DNA from: Thermodesulfobacteriota bacterium
GTDB lineage: Bacteria; Desulfobacterota; Syntrophorhabdia; Syntrophorhabdales; JANXAF01
Direction: 5' to 3'
NCBI GenBank assembly: GCA_025062045.1
Contig: JANXAF010000003.1
Coordinates: 105,444-169,443 of the forward strand
DNA: 64,000 bases
Of this stretch, positions 46,636 through 58,458 are shown piece by piece. The position numbers were made by a program, and so were the translations under genes. Under the pieces are notes generated by a model. The model ran no database searches. It was not told where the DNA came from and saw only the letters and a list, made by a program, of their open reading frames with translations. Every line of letters starts with the position of its first letter. Positions within the stretch are counted from its first letter, which is position 1.

Positions 46636-49305
46636 TTAGGCAGCTTTCGATATTTTTACGGCTGTAAATTTGAGTTCAGTAATCTTACATTCGGGGTCGA
46701 AACTCGTGCCTGTTAAGACATTCACGGGAGAATTGGGGTAGTGGAAGGTAGTAAAGACAGTCCCTTTTTGAACTCGGTCCGTCAGTTTAGCTTTGAGAAG
46801 TACGGACCCTCTTCTACTTTCTACTTTTACATTCTCCCCATCTTTTATCCCCAGATACTCAGCATCCTTCGGGTTCATCTCTAGGGTTGCTTCAGGAGCC
46901 AAGCTGTTTATGAGAGCTGACTTTCCGGTCATCGTTGCGGAATGGTAGTGATAATAGTGTCGGCCGATGATTAGTACAAATGGAAAGTCGTCATCCAAGG
47001 CGTCAGCTGGGGGCCTATATTCAACCGGTAAGAATAGACCCTTTCCCCTTACTATCCCACCCACATGAAGGATAGGCGTTCCAGGATGGTCTTCCGATGG
47101 GCATGGCCAATGGATCCCGCCCTGTTCTAATCGCTCGTAAGTTATCCCGGCGTATTGCGGCGTAACTTTCCTTATCTCTTCAAAGACATCTTTTGGCGAT
47201 TTGTAGTCCATCCAATAGCCCCACTTGTTTGCGAGCATCATTATGATTTCCCAATCCGGCTTTGCACCATCAGGCGCTGGAATGACTCTTCTTACTCGCT
47301 GAACCTTTCTTTCCGTATTTGTAAAAGTCCCGTCCTTCTCAAGGAAGGAACACGCAGGAAGTACAACGTGGGCAAGCTTTGCAGTCTCTGTTAAAAATAT
47401 GTCCTGGACAACCAAAAACTCTAAAGATTCGAAAGCCGTCCTTACATGGTTCAAATCCGGGTCCGTAACAAGTGGATTCTCCCCCATTATGTACATGGCC
47501 TTTATTTTGCCTTCTTGCGCGGCTTCCACCATCTCAGTTAAGGTTAAGCCAGGGCTTTCCGGCAATTTATGTCCCCATGCCTCTTCGAACTTCTCTCTTA
47601 TTTGGGGTATATCGATTCTCTGATATCCTGGGTAAACATTAGGAAGCCCCCCCATGTCACAGGCACCCTGAACATTGTTCTGTCCCCTAAGCGGATTTAT
47701 ACCTGATCCAGGCCTACCTATGTGCCCACAGAGAAGGGCTAAATTAGAAAGAGCCTTCACATTATCTGTTCCGTGGGAATGTTGTGTAAGACCCATGCAG
47801 TAAACTATGGAAGCCCTTTCGGCAGAAGCATACATTTTTGCAACTTTAATTAACTCTTCCTTCGTTATTCCTGTTATCTGCTCGACAAGGTCCGGGTTAT
47901 ATTTCTCAACGGTCTTTTCGAAAGCTTCGAAATTATCAGTGTTAGCTTCGATAAATTCCCTCTTGTGCAAATTTTCCTTTATTATTATGTGGCAAAGGCC
48001 ATTAATTAGGGCGACATCAGTCCCGGGCCTTATTTTTAAGAACACGGTAGCTTCCTCTGTTAAATCTATCGCCCGCGGGTCAATAACTACAAGCTTTACA
48101 CCCCTGTATTTTGCCAAGTGTTTAAGCCACATCCCTATAACAGGGTGATTCTCGGTAGGATTACTTCCAGAAACTATTATCACCTCCGAATTTTTTAGGT
48201 CATCAATGTTATTGGTCATTGCACCAGAACCGAGTGTTGTGGCAAGCCCTGCCACCGTAGGAGAGTGTCAGAGTCGGGCACAGTGGTCCACGTTGTTTGT
48301 TCCTATAACTGCCCTCATAAACTTCTGAAACAGATAGTTGTCTTCATTCGTGCATCTGGCGGAGCAGAGCCCTCCAATAGAGTTGCTGCCATAAGTTTCC
48401 TTTATCTCCGAAAACCTCCTTACGATGAGATTTAAGGCTTCGTCCCACGTTGTCTCGATAAAGGTGTCTCTTACCCGAATAAGGGGCTTTGTAAGCCTTT
48501 CTTTGCTCATCGCAAACTCGTAGGCAAATCTGCCTTTGACGCACAAGGTCCCTTTGTTTGGTCCGTTGGTGCCGTCTGCCGTAACCTTGATGATCCTTTT
48601 GCCCAAAACGTGAAAATCAAGAACGCAACCCACTCCGCAGTATCCACATACGGTTTTGACTCTCTTCGTTTGCCAAATTCTCCCCTTTATCGGACTTACG
48701 TTTTCGGTCAAGGCCCCGACTGGGCATACGGACAAGCACTCTCCGCAACTTATGCACTTTTGCGGATTTACGGCCTCTATTTTCGCTTCCATACCTTGTC
48801 CAACGATGTCTAGCACCTCCCTGCCAACCCATTCTCTGCAAACCCTCACACATCTCTGACAGAGGACACACCGCGCTGGATGATGTTTTATTGCTTGAGT
48901 GGCCCACCCATTTCCGTTCTTTTTCGGTTTCAGTTTAGGAAGGGTGACCTTTTCGATCTCATATTCGTATACCAAATCCTGTAAAACGCATTCCCCTGCT
49001 TTGTCACATATCGGACAGTCAAGAGGATGATTCATAAGCAAAAGTTGGAGGATCTCCCTTCTTATGTTTTTAATTCTCTCTGTGTGCGTAAAAACCCTCA
49101 TTCCGTCAGAAACGTAACTCTCACACGCCGGAATCGGTTTTTCGAACCCTTCAACCTCGACTACGCAGATCCTACATGAACCAATAGGAAGCACTTTCTC
49201 GAGATAGCAGAGTGTAGGAATCCTAATACCGGCCCTTTTCGCGCACGCAAGGATAGTCTCGTTTTCTTTTGCCTTGATTTCTTTCCCGTCGATGTAAACT
49301 ATCAT
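46636..49305 (-). CDS. fdhA: Formate dehydrogenase catalytic subunit, selenocysteine-containing
   Basis: This is one 889-residue gene interrupted by an in-frame UGA at 48270-48268. The surrounding protein reads DHCARL-U-HSPTVAGLA, the classic active-site motif, so residue 346 is selenocysteine. The N-terminus carries a [2Fe-2S] set (C33, C44, C47, C61), a His-ligated cluster (H93, C97, C100, C106), two ferredoxin clusters (C146-C156 and C184-C194) and the cysteines of the molybdopterin-domain cluster (from C220). The rest is the bis-pterin Mo/W domain. The architecture matches NAD- or ferredoxin-linked cytosolic formate dehydrogenases. AAGGAGGG precedes the ATG. No FdhB/NuoF diaphorase is adjacent; etfBA lie upstream. 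Confidence 0.93.
48239..48270 (-). promoter_or_regulatory. Selenocysteine UGA codon and SECIS-like hairpin
   Basis: The UGA (48270-48268) is followed after 12 bases by GTGGCA, loop GGGCT, and TGCCAC (48255-48239), a perfect six-base-pair stem. Spacing and a five-base loop starting GG resemble the Escherichia coli fdhF SECIS element read by SelB. Confidence 0.82.
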
Positions 49306-49409
49306 CGCCTGGCCCCCTCCTTTTGATTATGGCTAGCTCTTTACGCGAGCGGCCAAAAATGAATAAGAGACGACTTGGAAGGCTGGGCCTCCGAAAATTT
49401 GAAAATCCA

Positions 49410-50393
49410 TTACCTTCCCAGCTTGGCTTTGAACTTTTCTATAAGCTTTGGAATCACCTGATAGAGGTCTCCCACTATCCCAAACGTGGCAATTTTAAAT
49501 ATGGGAGCATCAGGGTCTTTGTTTATGGCCACGATACAGTCTGATGTCCTCATACCGGCAAGATGCTGGATTGCGCCAGAGATACCACAAGCGATGTAAA
49601 GTTTAGGCTTTACAGTCTTTCCTGTCTGTCCGACCTGATGTTCGTATGGGATCCATCCAGAATCTACAGCCGCTCTAGATGCCCCAACAGCCCCACCTAT
49701 AAGATCTGCAAACTCCTTAAGGAGATTAAAGCCTTCGGGTTTTCCGACTCCTCTTCCCCCTGAAACTATAATGTCTGCCTCGACCAGATTTACTGTAACT
49801 GCTGATTTAACAAAATCGAGGATTTTGATTAGGGCGTCCGATTCTCCAATTGACACACTTTCCTTTATGATCTCTCCTTCCTGACCGTCCTTTTTTTCGG
49901 GCATTTCGAAAGCTTTCGGCCTCACAGTAACGAGTTTAGGAGTAACTCTTTCATTTGCCACTGTGACGTTGAATCTTCCACCAAAGGCGGACCGAACCAT
50001 CTTTAAAACATTACCGTCATGGTAAACATTTATAGCATCGGCGCAAAGTCCAACCTGAAGTTTTCCCGCAACACCAGAGGAAAGGTCAGTTCCCTGCGTT
50101 GTGGATCTAAAGAGGACGATGTCTGGTCCATACTTACTTATAAGTTCGCAGGCAGATTTAGTGAAAAGGTCACTTCTAAAACTTTTAAGAAGAGGGTTAG
50201 ATACAACGTAAACCTTTTCGGCCCCGTACGAGAAGGCTTCTTTTGCAAGAGGGTCAACATTTTCTCCGATTATCAGCGCACAGACCTTCCCGCCTCTTTC
50301 CTGAGCAAGTTTTTTACCTATTCCTAAAAGTTCGAAAGAGAGTGGGGATGCAACACCGTCTTTATGCTCTATGTATACCCAAACGTCTCCCAT
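49410..50393 (-). CDS. etfA: Electron transfer flavoprotein, alpha subunit
   Basis: This 327-residue ETF alpha subunit has the C-terminal FAD-binding motif GQTGKTVKPKLYIACGISGA and the SGGRGVGKPEGF segment. With EtfB it carries electrons between flavin dehydrogenases and other carriers. No acyl-CoA dehydrogenase or ETF:quinone oxidoreductase gene is nearby, so the partner is unknown. It follows etfB by 10 bases. fdhA follows after 104 bases and could share the transcript. Confidence 0.93.
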   Translation of the reverse strand: MGDVWVYIEHKDGVASPLSFELLGIGKKLAQERGGKVCALIIGENVDPLAKEAFSYGAEKVYVVSNPLLKSFRSDLFTKSACELISKYGPDIVLFRSTTQGTDLSSGVAGKLQVGLCADAINVYHDGNVLKMVRSAFGGRFNVTVANERVTPKLVTVRPKAFEMPEKKDGQEGEIIKESVSIGESDALIKILDFVKSAVTVNLVEADIIVSGGRGVGKPEGFNLLKEFADLIGGAVGASRAAVDSGWIPYEHQVGQTGKTVKPKLYIACGISGAIQHLAGMRTSDCIVAINKDPDAPIFKIATFGIVGDLYQVIPKLIEKFKAKLGR

Positions 50394-50403
50394 TTTTTCC
50401 TCC

Positions 50404-51201
50404 TTACTTTATAATTTTGAGATCAAGTAGCTTGGAAACCAAAGTTTCTGCTATCTCTTCTAAATCACCTTTGAGTATCTCTCCCTGTCCTTTTGGGGGT
50501 GGCACAGATATCTCTGTTACCCTTGTTGCTGAAGCTGCGAGTCCAATTTTGTCTTTTTCGAGCCCCAAATCATCGCAGTTCCACTTAGGTATTTCCATCT
50601 TAGCCGCTTTTCTGATACCCATAAGGTTTGGAAGTCTAGGCTCATTTATGCCCTTAATTACCGAAACAACAGCAGGTAATTTGCCTTCCACCACCTCAAA
50701 TCCACCCTCGATTGCTCTCTCAACAACTATCCTTTTAGCCTTGAAGTCTATCTCCCTTATCTTTGCAACATAGGTAAGTGGAGTATAACCTAAGATCGAA
50801 GCGATTTCACCGGGCACGGCACCAGTGGAACCATCGGTTGATTGCCTACCCATAAAAACTATATCCACATCCCCTATCTTTTTTATGGCATTTGCCAAAG
50901 CGTATGCGGTACCGAAGGTGTCAGATCCTGAAAGCTGAGGATCGTTTATGTGGTAAACACCGTTCACACCCAGCGCAAGGGCATTTCTTAAAACCTCTTG
51001 GGCTCTTTCAGGTCCCATGGATATCGCATATATCTCGCAGTCGTATTTCTCTCTCGTAAGTAGTGCCTCTTCAATTGCAAACTCGTCAAAGGGATTTGTT
51101 ATGGGGTCAATGGCATCCCTTTTTAGTACACCCTTCTCAGTATCCCATTTTATTTCGGCTTCGGTATCCGGGACCTGCTTGACACAAACAGCAATCTTCA
51201 T
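50404..51201 (-). CDS. etfB: Electron transfer flavoprotein, beta subunit
   Basis: This 265-residue ETF beta subunit starts MKIAVCVKQVPDTEAEIKWD. It includes NPFDEFAIEEAL and GRQSTDGSTGAVPGEIA. The last segment recalls the DGDTAQVGPEIA region of bifurcating ETFs more than the mitochondrial type, but I cannot decide this by eye. ATG 51201 is chosen over the longer frame to 51237 because GGGGAGGT lies just upstream and family members start there. It overlaps nothing and is followed by etfA. Confidence 0.92.
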   Translation of the reverse strand: MKIAVCVKQVPDTEAEIKWDTEKGVLKRDAIDPITNPFDEFAIEEALLTREKYDCEIYAISMGPERAQEVLRNALALGVNGVYHINDPQLSGSDTFGTAYALANAIKKIGDVDIVFMGRQSTDGSTGAVPGEIASILGYTPLTYVAKIREIDFKAKRIVVERAIEGGFEVVEGKLPAVVSVIKGINEPRLPNLMGIRKAAKMEIPKWNCDDLGLEKDKIGLAASATRVTEISVPPPKGQGEILKGDLEEIAETLVSKLLDLKIIK

Positions 51202-51242
51202 CTTATACCTCCCCTGGAAGTTTATAAAAAATTTCACAATCT

Positions 51243-51492: not shown

Positions 51493-51533
51493 GAATAGAG
51501 GGTTAAGAAGATTCCTAACCGACAGAAACTTAG

Positions 51534-53000
51534 CTAAAATCTGCTCACTCTGTCTATTACCGTACCTTTCGAATCCCGTATCTCTATCATAAGAGGCATT
51601 CTTCCTGGAATTACGTGTGTTGCGCAACCAAAGCAAGGATCATAGGCACGAAATGCCATCTCCACATAGTTTAAGAGTCCTTCCTTGTCTTCCAATCTTC
51701 CCTTACTTATGAATGCCTTTGCAGCTTTTTTCACAGAGAGAGCTATGGGAGCAGCGTTGTGCTGGGTTGCAACGATAAGATTAACCCTTGTTACAATGCC
51801 TTTTCCATCTACTTCGTAGTCATGAATGAGAACCCCCCTACAGGCTTCCAAGCACCCCACACCTTTTCCTGTCAGTTCGTAGTTTGTGTTTCGTATATCT
51901 TTTCCAGTAAGGAGTGGATCATTCGCTATTTTTTGCATCTCCTCAGCAGCCTGCAAGGCCTCAATTAGTCTTGCCCAGTGATACGCCAAAGTGCTATGAA
52001 CTGGCTTTCCCAAAAGGGAGACCATTTCTTCATGCTCCTTTTGAGCAAGGGGAGTGGCCATACCGTAACAGACGTTGTATCTCGCAAGGGGTCCCACTCG
52101 GTAAAGAGAAGAGTCCCACCCTTCTTTTATGCCCTTCCAGCCGAATCTTCTAAGATAGTTCAACTTCACATAAGTCCAAGGCTCAACCCATTCTGCAATA
52201 TGCTCCACGTATTCCCTGGGATGAAAGAATGCGATTTCGTTTCCATCAGGATCCACAATCCTCAACATACCTTCATAATAACTTTGCCTCATATAGTCAT
52301 CAACCATTCCCATATAGTAAGTTTTTAGTGTGTATGCATCACTCATTATCAGATCTAAATATTCGCGTCTTCCTAAAACCTTTTCTTTAAAAAGCTTAAG
52401 AGCATATATTGCAAATTTTACACACATATTCGCAGTTTCCAAAATGAAATTCCTGTCCTCCTCCTTTATGCCTTTCGAGACACCTCCTGGAAGCCCTCCT
52501 TCAGGGTGTGCAGGTTTACTTGCGATAAGCTTTATGATATTTCTTGTCCTTTTTCTAACTTCAATAACTTCTTTTGCCAATTCGACACCAAGTTCTTCAA
52601 TGATCCCTAAAATGTTTCTCTTTTTTGGACTAGCATCGGGCCCAACTATGAAATCAGGTGCCCCGAGGAAAAAAAAATGCAAGAAATGGTCTTCCACGTA
52701 AGCCGCGCAAAGTTGCAGTTTTCTTATTAGTTTCGCTGTCGGTGTCGGAGCTGCCCCATAAATTACATCTAGAGCCTTAGTAGAAGCCAAATTGTGAGGA
52801 GTTGGACAGACACCGCATATGTTCGGAACTATCCTTGGCATCTCTTCTACTGGTCTTCCAATGCAGAACTTTTCAAAGCCCCTAAGCTCAGTGACCTGAA
52901 AGTAGGCCTCTTCCACGTCGCCGTCGTCATTCAAGAATATGTCGATCTTTCCGTGGCCTTCGAGCCTTGTTACTGGATTTATCGTTAGTCTTTCGCCCAT
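51534..53000 (-). CDS. mvhA: NiFe hydrogenase large subunit, MvhA-like (group 3)
   Basis: This 488-residue catalytic subunit has nickel ligands in both motifs: the N-terminal ICGVCPTPHN and the C-terminal DPCFGCATH. The tail after the last histidine (VIPGRMPLMIEI onward) is unusually long for a cleaved peptide; MvhA relatives carry similar tails. All four ligands are cysteine, with no UGA. ATG 53000 is preferred over the frame to 53048 because it begins the family N-terminus ERLTINPVTRLEGHG and has AGGTGGT upstream. It follows the small subunit and completes a hydrogenase with the GltD-MvhD fusion. Confidence 0.92.
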   Translation of the reverse strand: MGERLTINPVTRLEGHGKIDIFLNDDGDVEEAYFQVTELRGFEKFCIGRPVEEMPRIVPNICGVCPTPHNLASTKALDVIYGAAPTPTAKLIRKLQLCAAYVEDHFLHFFFLGAPDFIVGPDASPKKRNILGIIEELGVELAKEVIEVRKRTRNIIKLIASKPAHPEGGLPGGVSKGIKEEDRNFILETANMCVKFAIYALKLFKEKVLGRREYLDLIMSDAYTLKTYYMGMVDDYMRQSYYEGMLRIVDPDGNEIAFFHPREYVEHIAEWVEPWTYVKLNYLRRFGWKGIKEGWDSSLYRVGPLARYNVCYGMATPLAQKEHEEMVSLLGKPVHSTLAYHWARLIEALQAAEEMQKIANDPLLTGKDIRNTNYELTGKGVGCLEACRGVLIHDYEVDGKGIVTRVNLIVATQHNAAPIALSVKKAAKAFISKGRLEDKEGLLNYVEMAFRAYDPCFGCATHVIPGRMPLMIEIRDSKGTVIDRVSRF

Positions 53001-53016
53001 TTTACCACCTACCTTT

Positions 53017-53976
53017 CTATCTTCTCTTTCGAATAATTGATGATCCAATTGTGAACCTATAAAAGTAACCTACGGGATCTGCGATACCGTCAATCACACG
53101 TCTTCTTTCTTCCTCAGTGTTTCCTTCCACAAGACAAGAAAGCATAGAAAGATACTTTGAACCCATATCCTTTAGAGCTTCTACGGGTCCCATACAACCC
53201 CTACAAGGTAGGTTTATATCGAGACAGACATTACCGCATCCGCTCCTTGTGGACGGTCCAAGACAGATAACACCCTGCGCAAGGAAGCATAGATTAGGAT
53301 CTGCCTCTATCTCGTGTATCCTCTTTACGCTCCTTATCTCCAAGCGCTCAGGTTTTGTGTCGTTTCTTTGACATACAGCACAGAGTGCGACAGATGACGC
53401 AAGAGTAGTTCCTTTTGGAGGCAGGTCTCCTGATGATACTATGTTGAACATCTCCCTCACAAGGTCCGAAGAGGGTGGACAGCCAGGTAAGAAGTAGTCC
53501 ACGTCCACAACCTCAGAGACAGGTTTCACTTCCTCGTAGAATTCGGGTAGGGTAAGGTGCCTACCATCTTTTAAGTAAGATGACAGGGGTGCATTCCTTT
53601 CAGGATTCACAACGGTTGGAGCGTCCCTGTAGACAAAACGGAATATATCGTCTTTCGTCAATAGATTTGCAAGTGAGGGAGTCCCTCCGAAGCAGGCGCA
53701 CGCACCGAATGCCACAACATACGTTGACTTTTTCCTTAAGAGTTTTAGGATCTCGTAATTCTCTGAGTTTCTAACTGAACCGTTTATTACGCTCACAAAG
53801 ATTTGACCATCCTTTAGAGTTTCGATCTCCTCATATTTAAAATCCATAGCCACGGGCCAAAGAACGATTTCGAATAAATCAGCAATCCTTAGGATATCTT
53901 CGTTTAGATCTAGGATAGTCTCATCACATCCTCCGCAGGCGCCGAGCCAGCATATGGCAATCTGAGGTTTCCCCAT
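53017..53976 (-). CDS. mvhG: NiFe hydrogenase small subunit, MvhG-like
   Basis: This 319-residue Fe-S subunit begins with the proximal-cluster motif CWLGACGGCDE and includes FGACACFGG and LPGCPPSSD. Further cluster cysteines follow (GVICLGPSTRSGCGNVC, INLPCRGCMGP). No twin-arginine signal is present, so the enzyme is cytoplasmic. It matches F420-non-reducing or methyl-viologen hydrogenase subunit G. It starts 11 bases after the flavoprotein fusion stop and carries electrons from the NiFe site to MvhD. Confidence 0.92.
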   Translation of the reverse strand: MGKPQIAICWLGACGGCDETILDLNEDILRIADLFEIVLWPVAMDFKYEEIETLKDGQIFVSVINGSVRNSENYEILKLLRKKSTYVVAFGACACFGGTPSLANLLTKDDIFRFVYRDAPTVVNPERNAPLSSYLKDGRHLTLPEFYEEVKPVSEVVDVDYFLPGCPPSSDLVREMFNIVSSGDLPPKGTTLASSVALCAVCQRNDTKPERLEIRSVKRIHEIEADPNLCFLAQGVICLGPSTRSGCGNVCLDINLPCRGCMGPVEALKDMGSKYLSMLSCLVEGNTEEERRRVIDGIADPVGYFYRFTIGSSIIRKRR

Positions 53977-53987
53977 AACTTCCCTCC

Positions 53988-56162
53988 TTATCCTCGTAAA
54001 GGCTTCAAGGACCGGATTCTGTCAACAAAAGTATTTATGAAACCCTGAATTCTTTGAGCTTCGAGATCTATATCTGTCACTATCTCCAACCTTTCCTTTT
54101 CATATCCAAAAGCCTCAAGAACTTTCCTCAACATGTGTATACGTTTTTTTGCCTCCTCGTTACCGTCTTGAAAGTGACATTCGCCATCTGCGCAGCCAAA
54201 AAGTAAAACGCCGTCACTACCTGACTGGAACGCAAGTAGAATGTCTGTAGCCTCCACCTTACCTATACATAGAACCGGGATAAAGGCCTTTACATTTTTG
54301 ATTTCCATTCTATCCGCTGCCGGACCCCATCCGAATTTGCATGCAAAACAGACGATCCCAGTACCTTTTTCTAACTTTAGAGCCTGCTCCACTGGATCTG
54401 GAACTATCTGCCTTGCCCCCGATGGACATGCGGCCACGCACATTCCGCAAGCTTTACAGAGTAAGGGATCGGTATATGAAATCTTTTTAAATCCAACCTC
54501 CCTCCCTTCGAATACTACCGGAACCTCCCTAAGCTGTGCAGTATGATAGTTGCAAGCCGTAACGCATATGCTACATCCGCTACAGAGATCTTCATCTACC
54601 TTTACCGTCGGTAATTCATCCTGCAGATTGACAGCCACACATGCTTTACAAGAGATACACGGTCCGCATTCGAGACACCTTCTAGCCTCTCTTATTGCTT
54701 CCTCAAGTGTGAAACCGATTTCAAACTCGTTAAAGTTCATTCTTTCTTCAATTCTTCTCCACTTTGGCTTTGGTTCAGGCTTAAATATGCGCCTATTGGG
54801 AGTTTTACTGGCCTCGTAAATTACCACCCATTTTGCAAGACTTACTCCTCTTAAGTACCTGTCTATGAAATCGGCCGCCTCACGACCTTCTGCCATGGCA
54901 TCAACCATAAAGCCTATTCTCCTTACATCACCGCCAACGAAAACGTTTTTCTTCCTCAAACTCTGTCTCGTGATTGGATTTACAGAGAGTCTCCCTAGTT
55001 CGTCGAAAAGCCCTGCCTTGAGAAGCAAAGATCGGTCCGGCATCTGTCCTATCGAAATAAGGAGGACATCACCTTCAATTTCGATTATGTCATTCATATC
55101 GAATTTAGGATTGAACCCCTTTTCATCAAAAACAGAAACGCATCTTGGACACTCGATCTTTTTAAACTTGCCGTTTTCTCCGATTACAGATTTTACCCCT
55201 CTGGAATAAACTATCCTCACTCCCTCTTGTTCAGCACCCTCTATTTCTTCTTCATCGGCCGGTATGCCATCCTTCGATTTTTTATCCCACGTTTCAAGAC
55301 AGACTATGGTAACCTCGCCACCTAGTCTTACCGCAGACCTTGCCACATCGAAAGCCACATTACCGCCACCGATAACTATGACCCTTTTTCCCTTGAAGTA
55401 GTCTGAGGGAAGGGACTCTTCAGAAAGCTTACTAAGAAAATTGATACCGTAATCGACGTTTTCGATTCCTTGCCATTCAACAGGGGTCGTCCCCAGTGTG
55501 AGCGGTCTAGGTTGTGGAGTTCCGGGAGCGATGAATATTGCTTTAAAACCCTGTGCTTCAAGTTCCTCCACAATAGATCCCTCGAACCTCACCTGTGTCT
55601 CAACCTTTATTCCGGCTATGCGGATGAGGTTGTCTATAGTTGCATCCAAAACAGTCTCTGGAAGCCTATACTTTGGAATATACCTTAGTGCTCCACCCAG
55701 CTTCTTCCTGGCTTCAAAAACAGTTACATCGTAGCCTTTCTTGCTCAATTCGTACGCACACATAAGACCTGCCGGACCCCCACCAAGAATCGCAACAGGC
55801 CCTTTATCCTTTCTTAACGATAAAGGTTTCTTTTCGTAAAGGTAGGGTATGTACCACTGAGCCAAAAATTTTTTAAGGAGCCTCCTTTTTATAGCTCCCC
55901 CTTTTAGTCTGTAATTACATTCACGCTCGCAGATTCCACAAACATAACCACAGACTGTAAAAAAAGGGTTCCTCTCGTAGAGGAAATCACCTATCTCGAT
56001 CACTCCTTGCCTTGCCTTTTCTTCGTTTTCCGGAAGAAGGGATATCATGACATTCGTTCTCTGGATAGGTTCCTTTATGGGACACCTTATCTGGCATGGG
56101 GGTAAGATCTGCTGGACTGCAGCTTCTGCTTGGGCCTGCTCATCGGTCCTCAGTCTCCACAT
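53988..56162 (-). CDS. GltD/NfnB-like flavoprotein-ferredoxin-MvhD fusion
   Basis: This 724-residue protein joins three modules. Residues 1-110 form a GltD-type Fe-S domain (C23, C27, C71, C75, C78, C82). Residues about 120-440 carry FAD (GGGPAGLMCAYEL, 127 on) and NAD(P) (GGGNVAFDVARSA, 265 on) folds. Residues 496-580 hold several cysteine clusters for [4Fe-4S] centres, including two ferredoxin-type sets (CSGCSICVTAC, CKACGMCVAACP). Residues 602-724 are an MvhD/FlpD domain (C605, C608, C632, C657, C662; CADGECHFQDGN). MvhD normally links MvhAG hydrogenase to heterodisulfide reductase HdrA. Here a GltD-like NAD(P)H flavoprotein takes that place, so H2 oxidation is probably coupled to NAD(P)+ and perhaps ferredoxin. 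GGGAGGG precedes the ATG. Confidence 0.88.
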   Translation of the reverse strand: MWRLRTDEQAQAEAAVQQILPPCQIRCPIKEPIQRTNVMISLLPENEEKARQGVIEIGDFLYERNPFFTVCGYVCGICERECNYRLKGGAIKRRLLKKFLAQWYIPYLYEKKPLSLRKDKGPVAILGGGPAGLMCAYELSKKGYDVTVFEARKKLGGALRYIPKYRLPETVLDATIDNLIRIAGIKVETQVRFEGSIVEELEAQGFKAIFIAPGTPQPRPLTLGTTPVEWQGIENVDYGINFLSKLSEESLPSDYFKGKRVIVIGGGNVAFDVARSAVRLGGEVTIVCLETWDKKSKDGIPADEEEIEGAEQEGVRIVYSRGVKSVIGENGKFKKIECPRCVSVFDEKGFNPKFDMNDIIEIEGDVLLISIGQMPDRSLLLKAGLFDELGRLSVNPITRQSLRKKNVFVGGDVRRIGFMVDAMAEGREAADFIDRYLRGVSLAKWVVIYEASKTPNRRIFKPEPKPKWRRIEERMNFNEFEIGFTLEEAIREARRCLECGPCISCKACVAVNLQDELPTVKVDEDLCSGCSICVTACNYHTAQLREVPVVFEGREVGFKKISYTDPLLCKACGMCVAACPSGARQIVPDPVEQALKLEKGTGIVCFACKFGWGPAADRMEIKNVKAFIPVLCIGKVEATDILLAFQSGSDGVLLFGCADGECHFQDGNEEAKKRIHMLRKVLEAFGYEKERLEIVTDIDLEAQRIQGFINTFVDRIRSLKPLRG

Positions 56163-56247: not shown

Positions 56248-56273
56248 AACTTCCACCCAGAGGGGTGGAGGTT
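56248..56273 (-). terminator. Probable katG terminator
   Basis: Arms of 11 bases with one mismatch (56248-56258 and 56263-56273) enclose a four-base loop, starting four bases after the katG stop and followed on the minus strand by a T-rich stretch. Confidence 0.5.
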
Positions 56274-56277
56274 GAAA

Positions 56278-58458
56278 TCAAAGATAATACGTCGGACACG
56301 GATTCTTTCGGAGATCGAAGCGGTCAAGATTCATAATCTTGTGCCATACGGCAACAAAATCGTTAACGAATTTTTCCTCTCCGTCCGAGCACGCGTAAAC
56401 TTCAGCAATTGGTCTCAGCTCGGAATGGTGACCGAATATGAGATCTACCCTTGTGGCAGTCCACTTATGTGCGCCTGTCTTTCGGTCATAGCCGTAATAT
56501 AAATATCCTTTTTCGTCCTTCCTCTCCCATCTCCATCTCATATCGAGCAAATTCACGAAGAAATCGTTACTTAATGTACCTACGTTTTCCGTTAGGACAC
56601 CGTAATCGGTTTTACCGTAATTTGCTCCAAGCACCCTCATACCACCTAAAAGCACAACCATCTCCGGAACCGAAAGTGTCAAAAGATGAGCCTTGTCGAC
56701 TAAAAGATACTCTGGAGAGTAAGATGTCTTCCCAGTAAAGTAATTCCGGAATCCACAGGCTACAGGCTCAATTGCCTTGTAAAACTCAACCTCTGTCTGT
56801 TCCTGGGTTGCATCGACCCTTCCTGGCGTAAAAGGGACTTTTACTTCGATCCCTGCTCTCTTTGCCGCCTCTTTTATGGCAACACATCCGCCAAGCACTA
56901 TAAGGTCAGCCATCGAAATCTTCTTTTTTCCAGATCTAGAATTGAAATCCTCCATTATTGTTTCAAAAATGTTAAGAATCCTTTTTAGTTCTTGGGGATG
57001 GTTCACCTCCCAGCTGTTCATGGGATAAAGCCTTATGCGTCCTCCATTTGCGCCACCCCTTCTATCAGAACATCTAAATGTTGAGGCAGAGGACCAAGCA
57101 GTGTATACAAGCTCTGTTATGGTAAGCCCCTTTGCCAAAATTGCCTGAGAGAGAGCAAGCATGTCTTTTTCATCTATCAAATCGTAGTCCCTTTCTGGCA
57201 AAGGGTCCTGCCATACGAAAACTTCTTTTGGAACTTCTGGTCCCACATAGCACGAGAGCGGACCCATGTCTCTGTGGGTGAGTTTAAACCAGGCCTTTGC
57301 AAAAGCCCTCTCGAATTCATCCATATTTTCCATAAACCTTTTTGCGATCTTTGCATAGTCTGGATCGAACCTCAAAGCGAGATCACTTGTGAGCATAGTT
57401 GGCTTGTGTTTCTTTTGCGGATCGTAAGGATCGGGTATTATCTCCGGCGCATCTTTTGCAACCCACTGATACTTACCGGCAGGAGACTTGGTGAGCTCCC
57501 ATTCGTAACGAAAAAGGATGTGTAAGAAAGCGTTGCTAAATTTTGTAGGTGTGGGGGACCATATAACCTCGAATCCGCTTGTATAAGTGTCCGGCCCCAT
57601 ACCGGTCTTAAAACTACATTTCCATCCAAGACCCTGCTCTTCGTAAGGTGAACTTTCGGGGTCGGGACCTAGAAAAGTCTCAGGACATGCTCCATGAGTC
57701 TTTCCAAAAGCATGGCCACCGGCTATCAAGGCAACCGTTTCTTCGTCATTCATGCCCATCTTCGTGAATATCTCCCTTATCTGCTTTGCGGAGGCGAGAG
57801 GATCCGGATTTCCCTCCGGACCTTCCGGGTTAACATATATCAAACCCATCTCTGTTGCTGCAAAGGGCCTTTCAACTTCACCTTCCTTTACACGTTTGTC
57901 GCCTTTTAACATCTCCTCTTCTGGCCCCCAGTCAGGACTCTCATCAGGTTCGTACATGTCGACCCTTCCTCCGGAAAATCCAAAAGTCTTTACCCCCATC
58001 GATTCTAATGCTACGTTTCCGGCAAGGATTATTAAATCGGCCCAGGAAATCCTACGCCCATACTTCTGTTTGATAGGCCAAAGAAGCCGTAATGCCTTAT
58101 CTAGGTTTATGTTGTCGGGCCAATTTATCCTTGGAGGAAAACGGATCTGTCCTGTATTCGCTCCCCCCCTACCATCGAATACTCTATAGCTACCGGCACT
58201 GTGCCATGCGAGCCTGATCATAAGCCCGCCGTAATGTCCGAAATCTGCAGGCCACCACTCCTGAGAATTGCGAAGAGCTTCCTCAATGTCCTTCTTTACG
58301 GCTTGAAGATCAAGTTTTTCAAACTCGCTCACGTAGTCGAAATCAAAACCGTACGGGTTCGAACAAGGGCAATTCTGCCTAAGTATCTTCAAATTTAGCC
58401 TTTCTGGCCACCAATCTTGAATCCATCTTTTTCTTATGGTCTTCTCTTTCTCGTCCAT
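56278..58458 (-). CDS. katG: Catalase-peroxidase
   Basis: This 726-residue bifunctional heme enzyme removes hydrogen peroxide. The distal heme site [11 protein letters not shown] and GGLIRLAW-like second half are typical of the duplicated KatG fold. The proximal region [16 protein letters not shown]-type segment reads [15 protein letters not shown]. Residues of the Met-Tyr-Trp crosslink are suggested by the tryptophan in LAWHS and the tyrosine in [16 protein letters not shown] lies before the ATG and a near-consensus promoter upstream. It indicates oxidative-stress defence in an otherwise anaerobic gene set. Confidence 0.96.

What the first reader, a model, noticed from the sequence alone, without database searches (positions are those of the whole stretch)
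51534..56162. NiFe hydrogenase with MvhD fused to a GltD/NfnB-like NAD(P)H flavoprotein
The sequence shows MvhG- and MvhA-like subunits directly after a 724-residue protein carrying GltD-type Fe-S, FAD and NAD(P) folds, several Fe-S cluster motifs and a C-terminal MvhD domain. In known systems MvhD hands electrons to HdrA. Here no Hdr gene is present and a GltD-like flavoprotein occupies that position on one chain. I infer a cytoplasmic hydrogenase coupling H2 to NAD(P)+ and possibly ferredoxin, perhaps by flavin-based bifurcation as in NfnAB.
Basis: partly seen in the sequence, partly recalled or inferred. Interest (0 to 1): 0.8.

Follow-up and report, generated by a model that had tools for sequence, protein, structure and literature searches.

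The report
NADH-linked Mvh hydrogenase lacking HdrA
A bacterial hydrogen enzyme of a type that normally works with the heterodisulfide-reductase protein HdrA is here joined, through its wiring subunit, to a protein that handles NADH, so it probably swaps electrons directly between hydrogen gas and NADH, and annotation by hydrogenase class alone would name the wrong partner.

Summary
Window 56162-51534 (minus strand) encodes a 724-residue protein (GltD-like FAD/NAD module, two-cluster ferredoxin, MvhD/FlpD domain), then MvhG and MvhA with all metal ligands. The set recurs in the same order in 19 other distinct loci, fused or as GltD + MvhD. In 395 genomes of the phylum, the 13 with the GltD protein at >=51% identity are exactly the 13 with MvhA at >=56%. 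The next-nearest MvhAs fetched lie almost all beside HdrA.

The NfnAB-style bifurcation idea is not supported. The GltD module is of the StnC/NfnABC type: it has StnC's lysine cluster ligand (glutamate in NfnB), and the helix with two cluster cysteines has moved from the N- to the C-terminal side, as in StnC, whose FAD was shown experimentally not to bifurcate. The NADP motif YRR is replaced by an invariant Glu, so NAD(H) is predicted.

Best reading: a soluble, reversible, non-bifurcating H2:NAD+ oxidoreductase in which a StnC-type GltD module has taken HdrA's place. A sister fusion in the same genome sits with MetVF. I found no description of this hydrogenase in the papers held, but the 2015 Syntrophorhabdus genome paper was not available. 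New variant of a known kind; no activity has been shown.

The parts
53988..56162 (-). GltD-ferredoxin-MvhD fusion protein, 724 aa
   Evidence: Pfam/NCBIfam; 19 other distinct loci in the same order
55851..56138 (-). N-terminal Fe-S domain (Fer4_20), residues 9-104: C23, C27, C75, C78, C82 and K97; lacks the RCxxC of NfnB (A15, Q18 instead)
   Evidence: ligand counts; alignments to NfnB/NfnABC; NfnB ligand list in PMC7596348
55872..55874 (-). codon of K97, equivalent of StnC K170 (ligand of the FAD-proximal cluster); Glu in NfnB/NfnI
   Evidence: PMC10482914
54885..55796 (-). FAD- and NAD-binding module (Pyr_redox_2), residues 123-426
   Evidence: 1.1e-26; fold search
55293..55295 (-). codon of E290, where NADP enzymes have the YRR motif
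   Evidence: 21 of 21 hydrogenase-type sequences; PMC7596348
54627..54791 (-). relocated cluster helix, residues 458-512 (RC496LEC499GPC502xxC505xxC508)
   Evidence: profile hits NfnB N-terminus 1.2e-9 and the C-terminal side of NfnABC/StnC
54414..54584 (-). two-cluster ferredoxin domain, residues 527-583
   Evidence: eight Cys invariant
54006..54356 (-). MvhD/FlpD domain, residues 603-719; Cys 605, 608, 632, 657, 662
   Evidence: PDB MvhD 5odc_D 3.6e-18
53017..53976 (-). MvhG, hydrogenase small subunit, three clusters expected
51534..53000 (-). MvhA, [NiFe] large subunit (ORF listed from TTG 53048)
56252..56269 (-). terminator-like hairpin between katG and the fusion gene
   Evidence: weak (15 found, 11.6 expected)
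51501..51520 (-). terminator-like hairpin after MvhA
   Evidence: weak (15 found, 11.6 expected)

Best explanation
A soluble, reversible, non-bifurcating H2:NAD+ oxidoreductase. Inferred route: H2 at the [NiFe] site of MvhA; the clusters of MvhG; the [2Fe-2S] of the MvhD domain; the two-cluster ferredoxin domain; the distal cluster of the GltD module (C23, C82, C496, C499); the proximal cluster (C27, C75, C78, K97); FAD; hydride to NAD+. It can run backwards when H2 is kept low. HdrA's flavin core has been replaced by a StnC-type GltD module, while a ferredoxin-MvhD tail like that of HdrA2 is kept as the plug for the hydrogenase. Shown: genes, domains, ligand conservation, gene linkage, sequence and fold similarity to StnC/NfnABC. 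Inferred: complex formation, direction, cofactor occupancy, NAD preference, absence of bifurcation.
For: Same gene order in 20 distinct loci, MvhD fused in 8 and separate but in place in 12. In 395 genomes the 13 with the GltD protein are exactly the 13 with this MvhA. GltD-linked MvhAs form one clade, 19 of 21 rows, 100/100. Ni ligands and MvhG cysteines intact; hypD present in the genome. K97 and the relocated helix as in non-bifurcating StnC; best folds NfnABC and StnABC. E290 for YRR. Tail 516-721 like the HdrA2 tail (1.4e-35), through which MvhAG electrons enter HdrA (PMC9012536).
Against: No biochemistry. The NAD prediction rests on one motif. In L012 and L072 hdr genes follow the hydrogenase genes on the same strand, and the genome has other HdrA loci, so an Hdr partner is not excluded. 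The two-cluster ferredoxin domain could exchange with free ferredoxin. R166, the N5 arginine of NfnB, is conserved, as it also is in StnC. C502/C505/C508 are unexplained. AlphaFold confidence is low in the tail.
Confidence: 0.62

Rival explanations
1. Electron bifurcation or confurcation: H2 drives NAD(P)+ and ferredoxin reduction together, the GltD FAD being the branching flavin as in NfnB, or the complex recruiting a HydBC-like module from elsewhere.
For: GltD fold shared with NfnB; R166 conserved; ferredoxin-like domain and extra Cys triad; NuoF-like genes exist elsewhere in the genome.
Against: StnC-type lysine and permuted helix, StnC shown non-bifurcating; no second flavin subunit, NfnA, HydBC or HdrBC in the operon; clusters on one side of the FAD only, as far as the domains show.
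Confidence: 0.15
2. Plain H2:NADP+ (not NAD+) oxidoreductase by the same wiring.
For: StnC and NfnB use NADP(H) at this module; one of four MetVF-type relatives keeps YRR-like residues.
Against: YRR replaced, E290 in 21 of 21 hydrogenase-type sequences; DsrL work ties YRR to NADP use (PMC7596348).
Confidence: 0.1
3. MvhAG feeds an HdrABC encoded elsewhere in the genome, with the fusion as a side entry for NADH, so that the whole is an Hdr-linked confurcating complex.
For: Three HdrA loci in the genome; hdr genes downstream in L012 and L072; L122 joins HdrC-HdrB-HdrA/GltD-MvhD-MvhG-MvhA.
Against: Each HdrA locus has its own MvhD; GltD-linked MvhA is a separate clade from Hdr-linked MvhA; hdr genes are absent from most of the 20 loci.
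Confidence: 0.1
4. MvhAG passes electrons through the fusion to another acceptor (for example free ferredoxin at the two-cluster domain), the NAD site being vestigial.
For: Ferredoxin-like domain next to MvhD.
Against: FAD and NAD motifs are invariant across distant relatives: G127, G129, G265, G267, D412, E290.
Confidence: 0.03

Closest known systems
MvhAGD-HdrABC (group 3c [NiFe] hydrogenase with heterodisulfide reductase; PDB 5odc)
   Same: MvhA, MvhG and MvhD homologues; MvhD joined to a two-cluster ferredoxin domain; HdrA2-like C-terminal tail.
   Different: No HdrA flavin core, no HdrB/HdrC; a GltD module sits in their place.
StnABC / NfnABC transhydrogenases (8oh5, 9bov, 9n5u)
   Same: GltD module with lysine at the proximal cluster and the relocated cluster helix; best fold matches.
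   Different: Those have a NuoG-like part and a HydBC-type bifurcating module and use NADPH; here MvhD and a hydrogenase follow, and NAD(H) is predicted.
NfnAB
   Same: GltD fold, FAD and two N-terminal clusters.
   Different: Glu ligand, unpermuted helix, NfnA partner and NADP motif in NfnAB; none of these here.
NiFe-HydABCSL of Acetomicrobium mobile (7t2r; PMC8880783)
   Same: A [NiFe] hydrogenase coupled to NAD; its large subunit is the top PDB hit of MvhA.
   Different: Uses NuoF-like HydB with FMN and bifurcates; lacks MvhD and GltD.
DsrL
   Different: Partner is DsrAB; no MvhD domain, no hydrogenase.
HdrL / type III HdrA (HdrA-GltD fusions beside mvhD; PMC2702500, PMC12054007)
   Same: GltD and MvhD brought together, in a Bathyarchaeota case with mvhADG.
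   Different: They keep the HdrA core; here it is gone.
MetVF with RnfC2 or HdrABC-MvhD (type III and IV MTHFR; PMC8760232)
   Same: An NADH module plugged onto a catalytic pair; this genome has a GltD-MvhD-MetV-MetF version.
   Different: Other catalytic pair; GltD in place of RnfC2 or HdrA.

Membership tests
Group 3c (Mvh-type) [NiFe] hydrogenase, catalytic part | MvhA with two CxxC Ni motifs and MvhG with a three-cluster pattern, closest to Mvh/Vhu | tested here: met
   7t2r_D scores as high as 5odc_F for MvhA, but MvhG is clearly nearest 5odc_E
Group 3c (Mvh-type) [NiFe] hydrogenase, catalytic part | MvhD subunit with conserved cysteines | tested here: met
   FlpD 2.1e-26; C608, C632, C657, C662 conserved
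MvhAGD-HdrABC complex | HdrA (FAD core) and HdrBC encoded with it | tested here: not met
   none in the operon; no CCG domain on the window's contig; Hdr loci elsewhere have their own MvhD
NfnAB-type bifurcating transhydrogenase | Glu ligand at the FAD-proximal cluster | tested here: not met
   K97, 20 of 20; Glu in NfnB/NfnI
NfnAB-type bifurcating transhydrogenase | NfnA (FAD, [2Fe-2S]) partner | tested here: not met
   no such gene in the operon
StnC/NfnABC-type GltD module | Lys ligand and cluster helix on the C-terminal side | tested here: met
StnABC/NfnABC complex | NuoG-like part and HydBC-type module | tested here: not met
   neither in the protein nor in the operon; NuoF-like genes only on contigs C2 and C8
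HydABCSL-type bifurcating [NiFe] hydrogenase | HydB (NuoF-like, FMN) and HydC in the cluster | tested here: not met
DsrL | encoded with dsrAB and without MvhD | tested here: not met
   dsrA is on contig C7, the window on C3; MvhD domain present
H2:NAD+ oxidoreductase (function) | catalyses H2-dependent NAD+ reduction without ferredoxin | not testable with these tools
   needs purified enzyme

The most novel reading that the evidence does not exclude
The GltD-ferredoxin-MvhD protein is a general, HdrA-free NADH plug for MvhD-dependent enzymes: one branch serves the MvhAG hydrogenase, a sister branch the methylene-THF reductase MetVF. It arose when a StnC-type GltD module replaced HdrA's flavin core while the HdrA-like ferredoxin-MvhD tail was kept, turning bifurcating machines into plain NADH-linked ones.
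Probability: 0.45. Interest if true: 0.62.

Novelty: new variant of a known kind. Interest (0 to 1): 0.52.

Why it matters
Group 3c hydrogenases are commonly read as HdrABC-linked, bifurcating enzymes. In at least 13 of 395 sampled genomes of the phylum (8 families), and in an acidobacterial MAG, that reading would give the wrong partner, the wrong energetics and probably a ferredoxin yield that does not exist. The family also suggests that MvhD can be served by a flavoprotein other than HdrA, and it offers testable residues (K97, E290, C496/C499) for the question of what makes a GltD module bifurcate or not.

Tried and rejected
NfnB-type bifurcation: rejected as the leading reading on residue and permutation evidence. 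DsrL membership: rejected because of the MvhD domain and hydrogenase context. Plasmid-borne relatives: the listed matches are about 27-33% identical, GltD-like proteins only. AlphaFold model: flavoprotein core mostly confident, but N-terminus, linkers, ferredoxin and MvhD parts low (mean pLDDT 76, pTM 0.67); coordinates do not reach the tools, so no cofactor distances were measured. Promoter scan: not above shuffles (14 against 16.6); terminators 15 against 11.6, so operon limits are weak evidence. Literature: ten searches found no description of a GltD-MvhD-MvhGA hydrogenase; the Syntrophorhabdus aromaticivorans genome paper (10.1111/1462-2920.12444) is not held, so an earlier mention cannot be excluded. 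A Geobacter proteomics paper that names an Mvh hydrogenase gives no partner for it (PMC7894505). No MvhA tree with reference groups 3a, 3b and 3d was made, so 'group 3c' rests on best matches.
Full report
WHAT IS THERE. On the minus strand, upstream to downstream: katG (58458-56278), the 724-aa fusion (56162-53988), MvhG (53976-53017) and MvhA (to 51534; start probably 53000). After a 297-base gap follow EtfB, EtfA and a selenocysteine FdhA. Terminator-like hairpins lie on either side of the three hydrogenase genes (56269-56252 and 51520-51501), which suggests a three-gene operon, but such hairpins are not clearly above chance here. The fusion has a GltD-type Fe-S domain, an FAD/NAD module, a two-cluster ferredoxin domain and an MvhD domain. 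No NCBIfam model reaches its cut-off; the best is PRK12771 at 328 bits against 516. Residues 516-721 match the C-terminal ferredoxin-MvhD tail of HdrA2 (1.4e-35); a blast of the tail against this genome's own HdrA and MvhD agrees.

CONSERVATION. A scan of GTDB contigs gave eleven MAG loci with the same set; whole-genome searches gave nine more, one with a sequence already seen. With the window that is 20 distinct loci with the order GltD[-MvhD], MvhG, MvhA. MvhD is fused in 8 and is a separate gene in the same place in 12, which argues that the fusion reflects a real complex. In 395 genomes drawn from the phylum, the 13 with the GltD protein at 51% identity or more are exactly the 13 with MvhA at 56% or more, in 8 families. 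Within the window's own order, 11 of 41 genomes have the fusion at 63% or more. Of 16 next-nearest MvhA loci fetched, 14 have HdrA beside the hydrogenase genes; L123 ends at MvhD at the contig edge and L137 showed no HdrA hit directly beside them. In the MvhA tree 19 of 21 GltD-linked rows form one clade (100/100) with the window inside; L014 falls among Hdr-linked MvhAs, a partner swap, and L015 branches apart.

WHICH KIND OF GltD MODULE. Three features bear on this. First, NfnB holds its FAD-proximal cluster with a glutamate (PMC7596348; PMC10482914). At that place the Pyrococcus and Thermotoga proteins read LERF, the NfnABC proteins LKRF, and the window LKKF. K97 is invariant in 20 of 20 hydrogenase-type and 4 of 4 MetVF-type sequences. 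Second, the two N-terminal cysteines that NfnB uses for its distal cluster (C39, C42) are absent here (A15, Q18). A profile of residues 458-512, with the invariant C496 and C499, hits the N-terminus of T. maritima NfnB (residues 11-49, 1.2e-9) and of Pyrococcus NfnI (1.5e-5), and hits NfnABC and StnC on the C-terminal side, as here (6.8e-7 to 1.9e-4). So the cluster helix has moved to the other end of the module, as in StnC. Third, the best fold matches are NfnABC and StnABC. In StnABC the FAD of this module was shown not to bifurcate; it passes NADPH electrons into a cluster chain. A caution: the arginine that touches FAD N5 in NfnB is conserved in StnC and here (R166), so it does not discriminate.

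NAD OR NADP. DsrL enzymes with a YRR motif use NADP(H) (PMC7596348). Here the place reads C/A-L-E, with E290 in 21 of 21 hydrogenase-type sequences. NAD(H) is predicted from this motif alone.

HOW IT MOST LIKELY WORKS. [quoted passage not shown] A like tail sits here on a GltD core, so the simplest route is [NiFe], MvhG clusters, MvhD, ferredoxin clusters, distal and proximal GltD clusters, FAD, NAD+. My own estimate from standard potentials: H+/H2 at pH 7 is about -296 mV at 10 Pa H2, and NAD+/NADH about -290 to -276 mV at ratios of 10 to 30. The reaction is thus near equilibrium at syntrophic H2 levels and can run either way. The genome has dissimilatory sulfite reductase, CODH/ACS and hypD, so H2 uptake to NADH and H2 release from NADH are both plausible; the direction is not shown.

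A SISTER SYSTEM. The same genome has a second GltD-MvhD fusion (L009 11760-9691), followed by MetV and MetF; the cluster recurs in L086, L087, L089 and L090. It has the same lysine and relocated helix. It looks like an NADH plug for methylene-THF reductase, beside the known RnfC2 and HdrABC-MvhD types (PMC8760232).

RELATION TO KNOWN SYSTEMS. HdrA-GltD fusions beside mvhD are known (HdrL in Desulfobacterium autotrophicum, PMC2702500; type III HdrA in archaea, PMC12054007; NfnB-like insertions in ANME-1 HdrA, PMC9012536). L122 is of that kind, with MvhG and MvhA attached. What is different here is that no HdrA core remains. I found no paper in the library describing that arrangement.

LIMITS. 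Nothing here is biochemical. The invariant C502, C505 and C508, absent from the four MetVF-type sequences, are unexplained; with C71, which is invariant but not an NfnB ligand, they might hold one more cluster. In L012 and L072 hdr genes follow the hydrogenase genes on the same strand. The 13-of-13 match is not 13 independent events. The literature search covers open-licence papers only.

Noticed in passing
L009 1113-5136 (own genome, contig C4); L086 13650-17667: A [NiFe] hydrogenase small and large subunit pair directly followed by MetV and MetF, within 1-13 bases, 81-83% conserved hydrogenase in a second genome of the family: possibly an H2-linked methylene-THF reductase.
   Followed up: partly
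L009 8144-11760: Second GltD-MvhD fusion (689 aa) followed by MetV and MetF; same cluster in L086, L087, L089, L090.
   Followed up: partly
window 48268-48270: In-frame TGA (residue 346) inside the formate dehydrogenase gene 49305-46636(-), read as selenocysteine; the mechanical ORF list splits it in two.
   Followed up: yes
window 49305-51237: EtfB and EtfA genes directly upstream of the selenocysteine formate dehydrogenase, an unusual pairing.
   Followed up: no
L006 8511-9359: HdrA-linked MvhD with an in-frame TGA where the second cysteine of CxWC is expected (CHWU), a likely selenoprotein; one search also shows a TGA in the MvhD of L003/L008.
   Followed up: no
window 56278-58458: A catalase-peroxidase (KatG) gene directly upstream of the hydrogenase genes in a genome with sulfite reductase and CODH/ACS.
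   Followed up: no
L014 8001-12680: Window-type GltD-MvhD fusion (62%) beside MvhG/MvhA (42%/52%) whose MvhA falls in the Hdr-linked clade: a partner swap.
   Followed up: partly
L015 8067-10757: A second, Hdr-type MvhD gene directly upstream of the fused GltD-MvhD.
   Followed up: no
L122 3505-11263: HdrC, HdrB, a 1132-aa protein with a GltD part, MvhD, MvhG, MvhA: a possible intermediate between Hdr-linked and GltD-linked hydrogenases.
   Followed up: partly
window 54755-54791 and 54627-54680 (residues 458-512): Three further invariant cysteines (C502, C505, C508) found only in the hydrogenase-type proteins; ligand role unknown.
   Followed up: partly
L129 9254-11605: A 783-aa protein with an MvhD domain at its N-terminal side, right after an MvhD-MvhG-MvhA set.
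   Followed up: no
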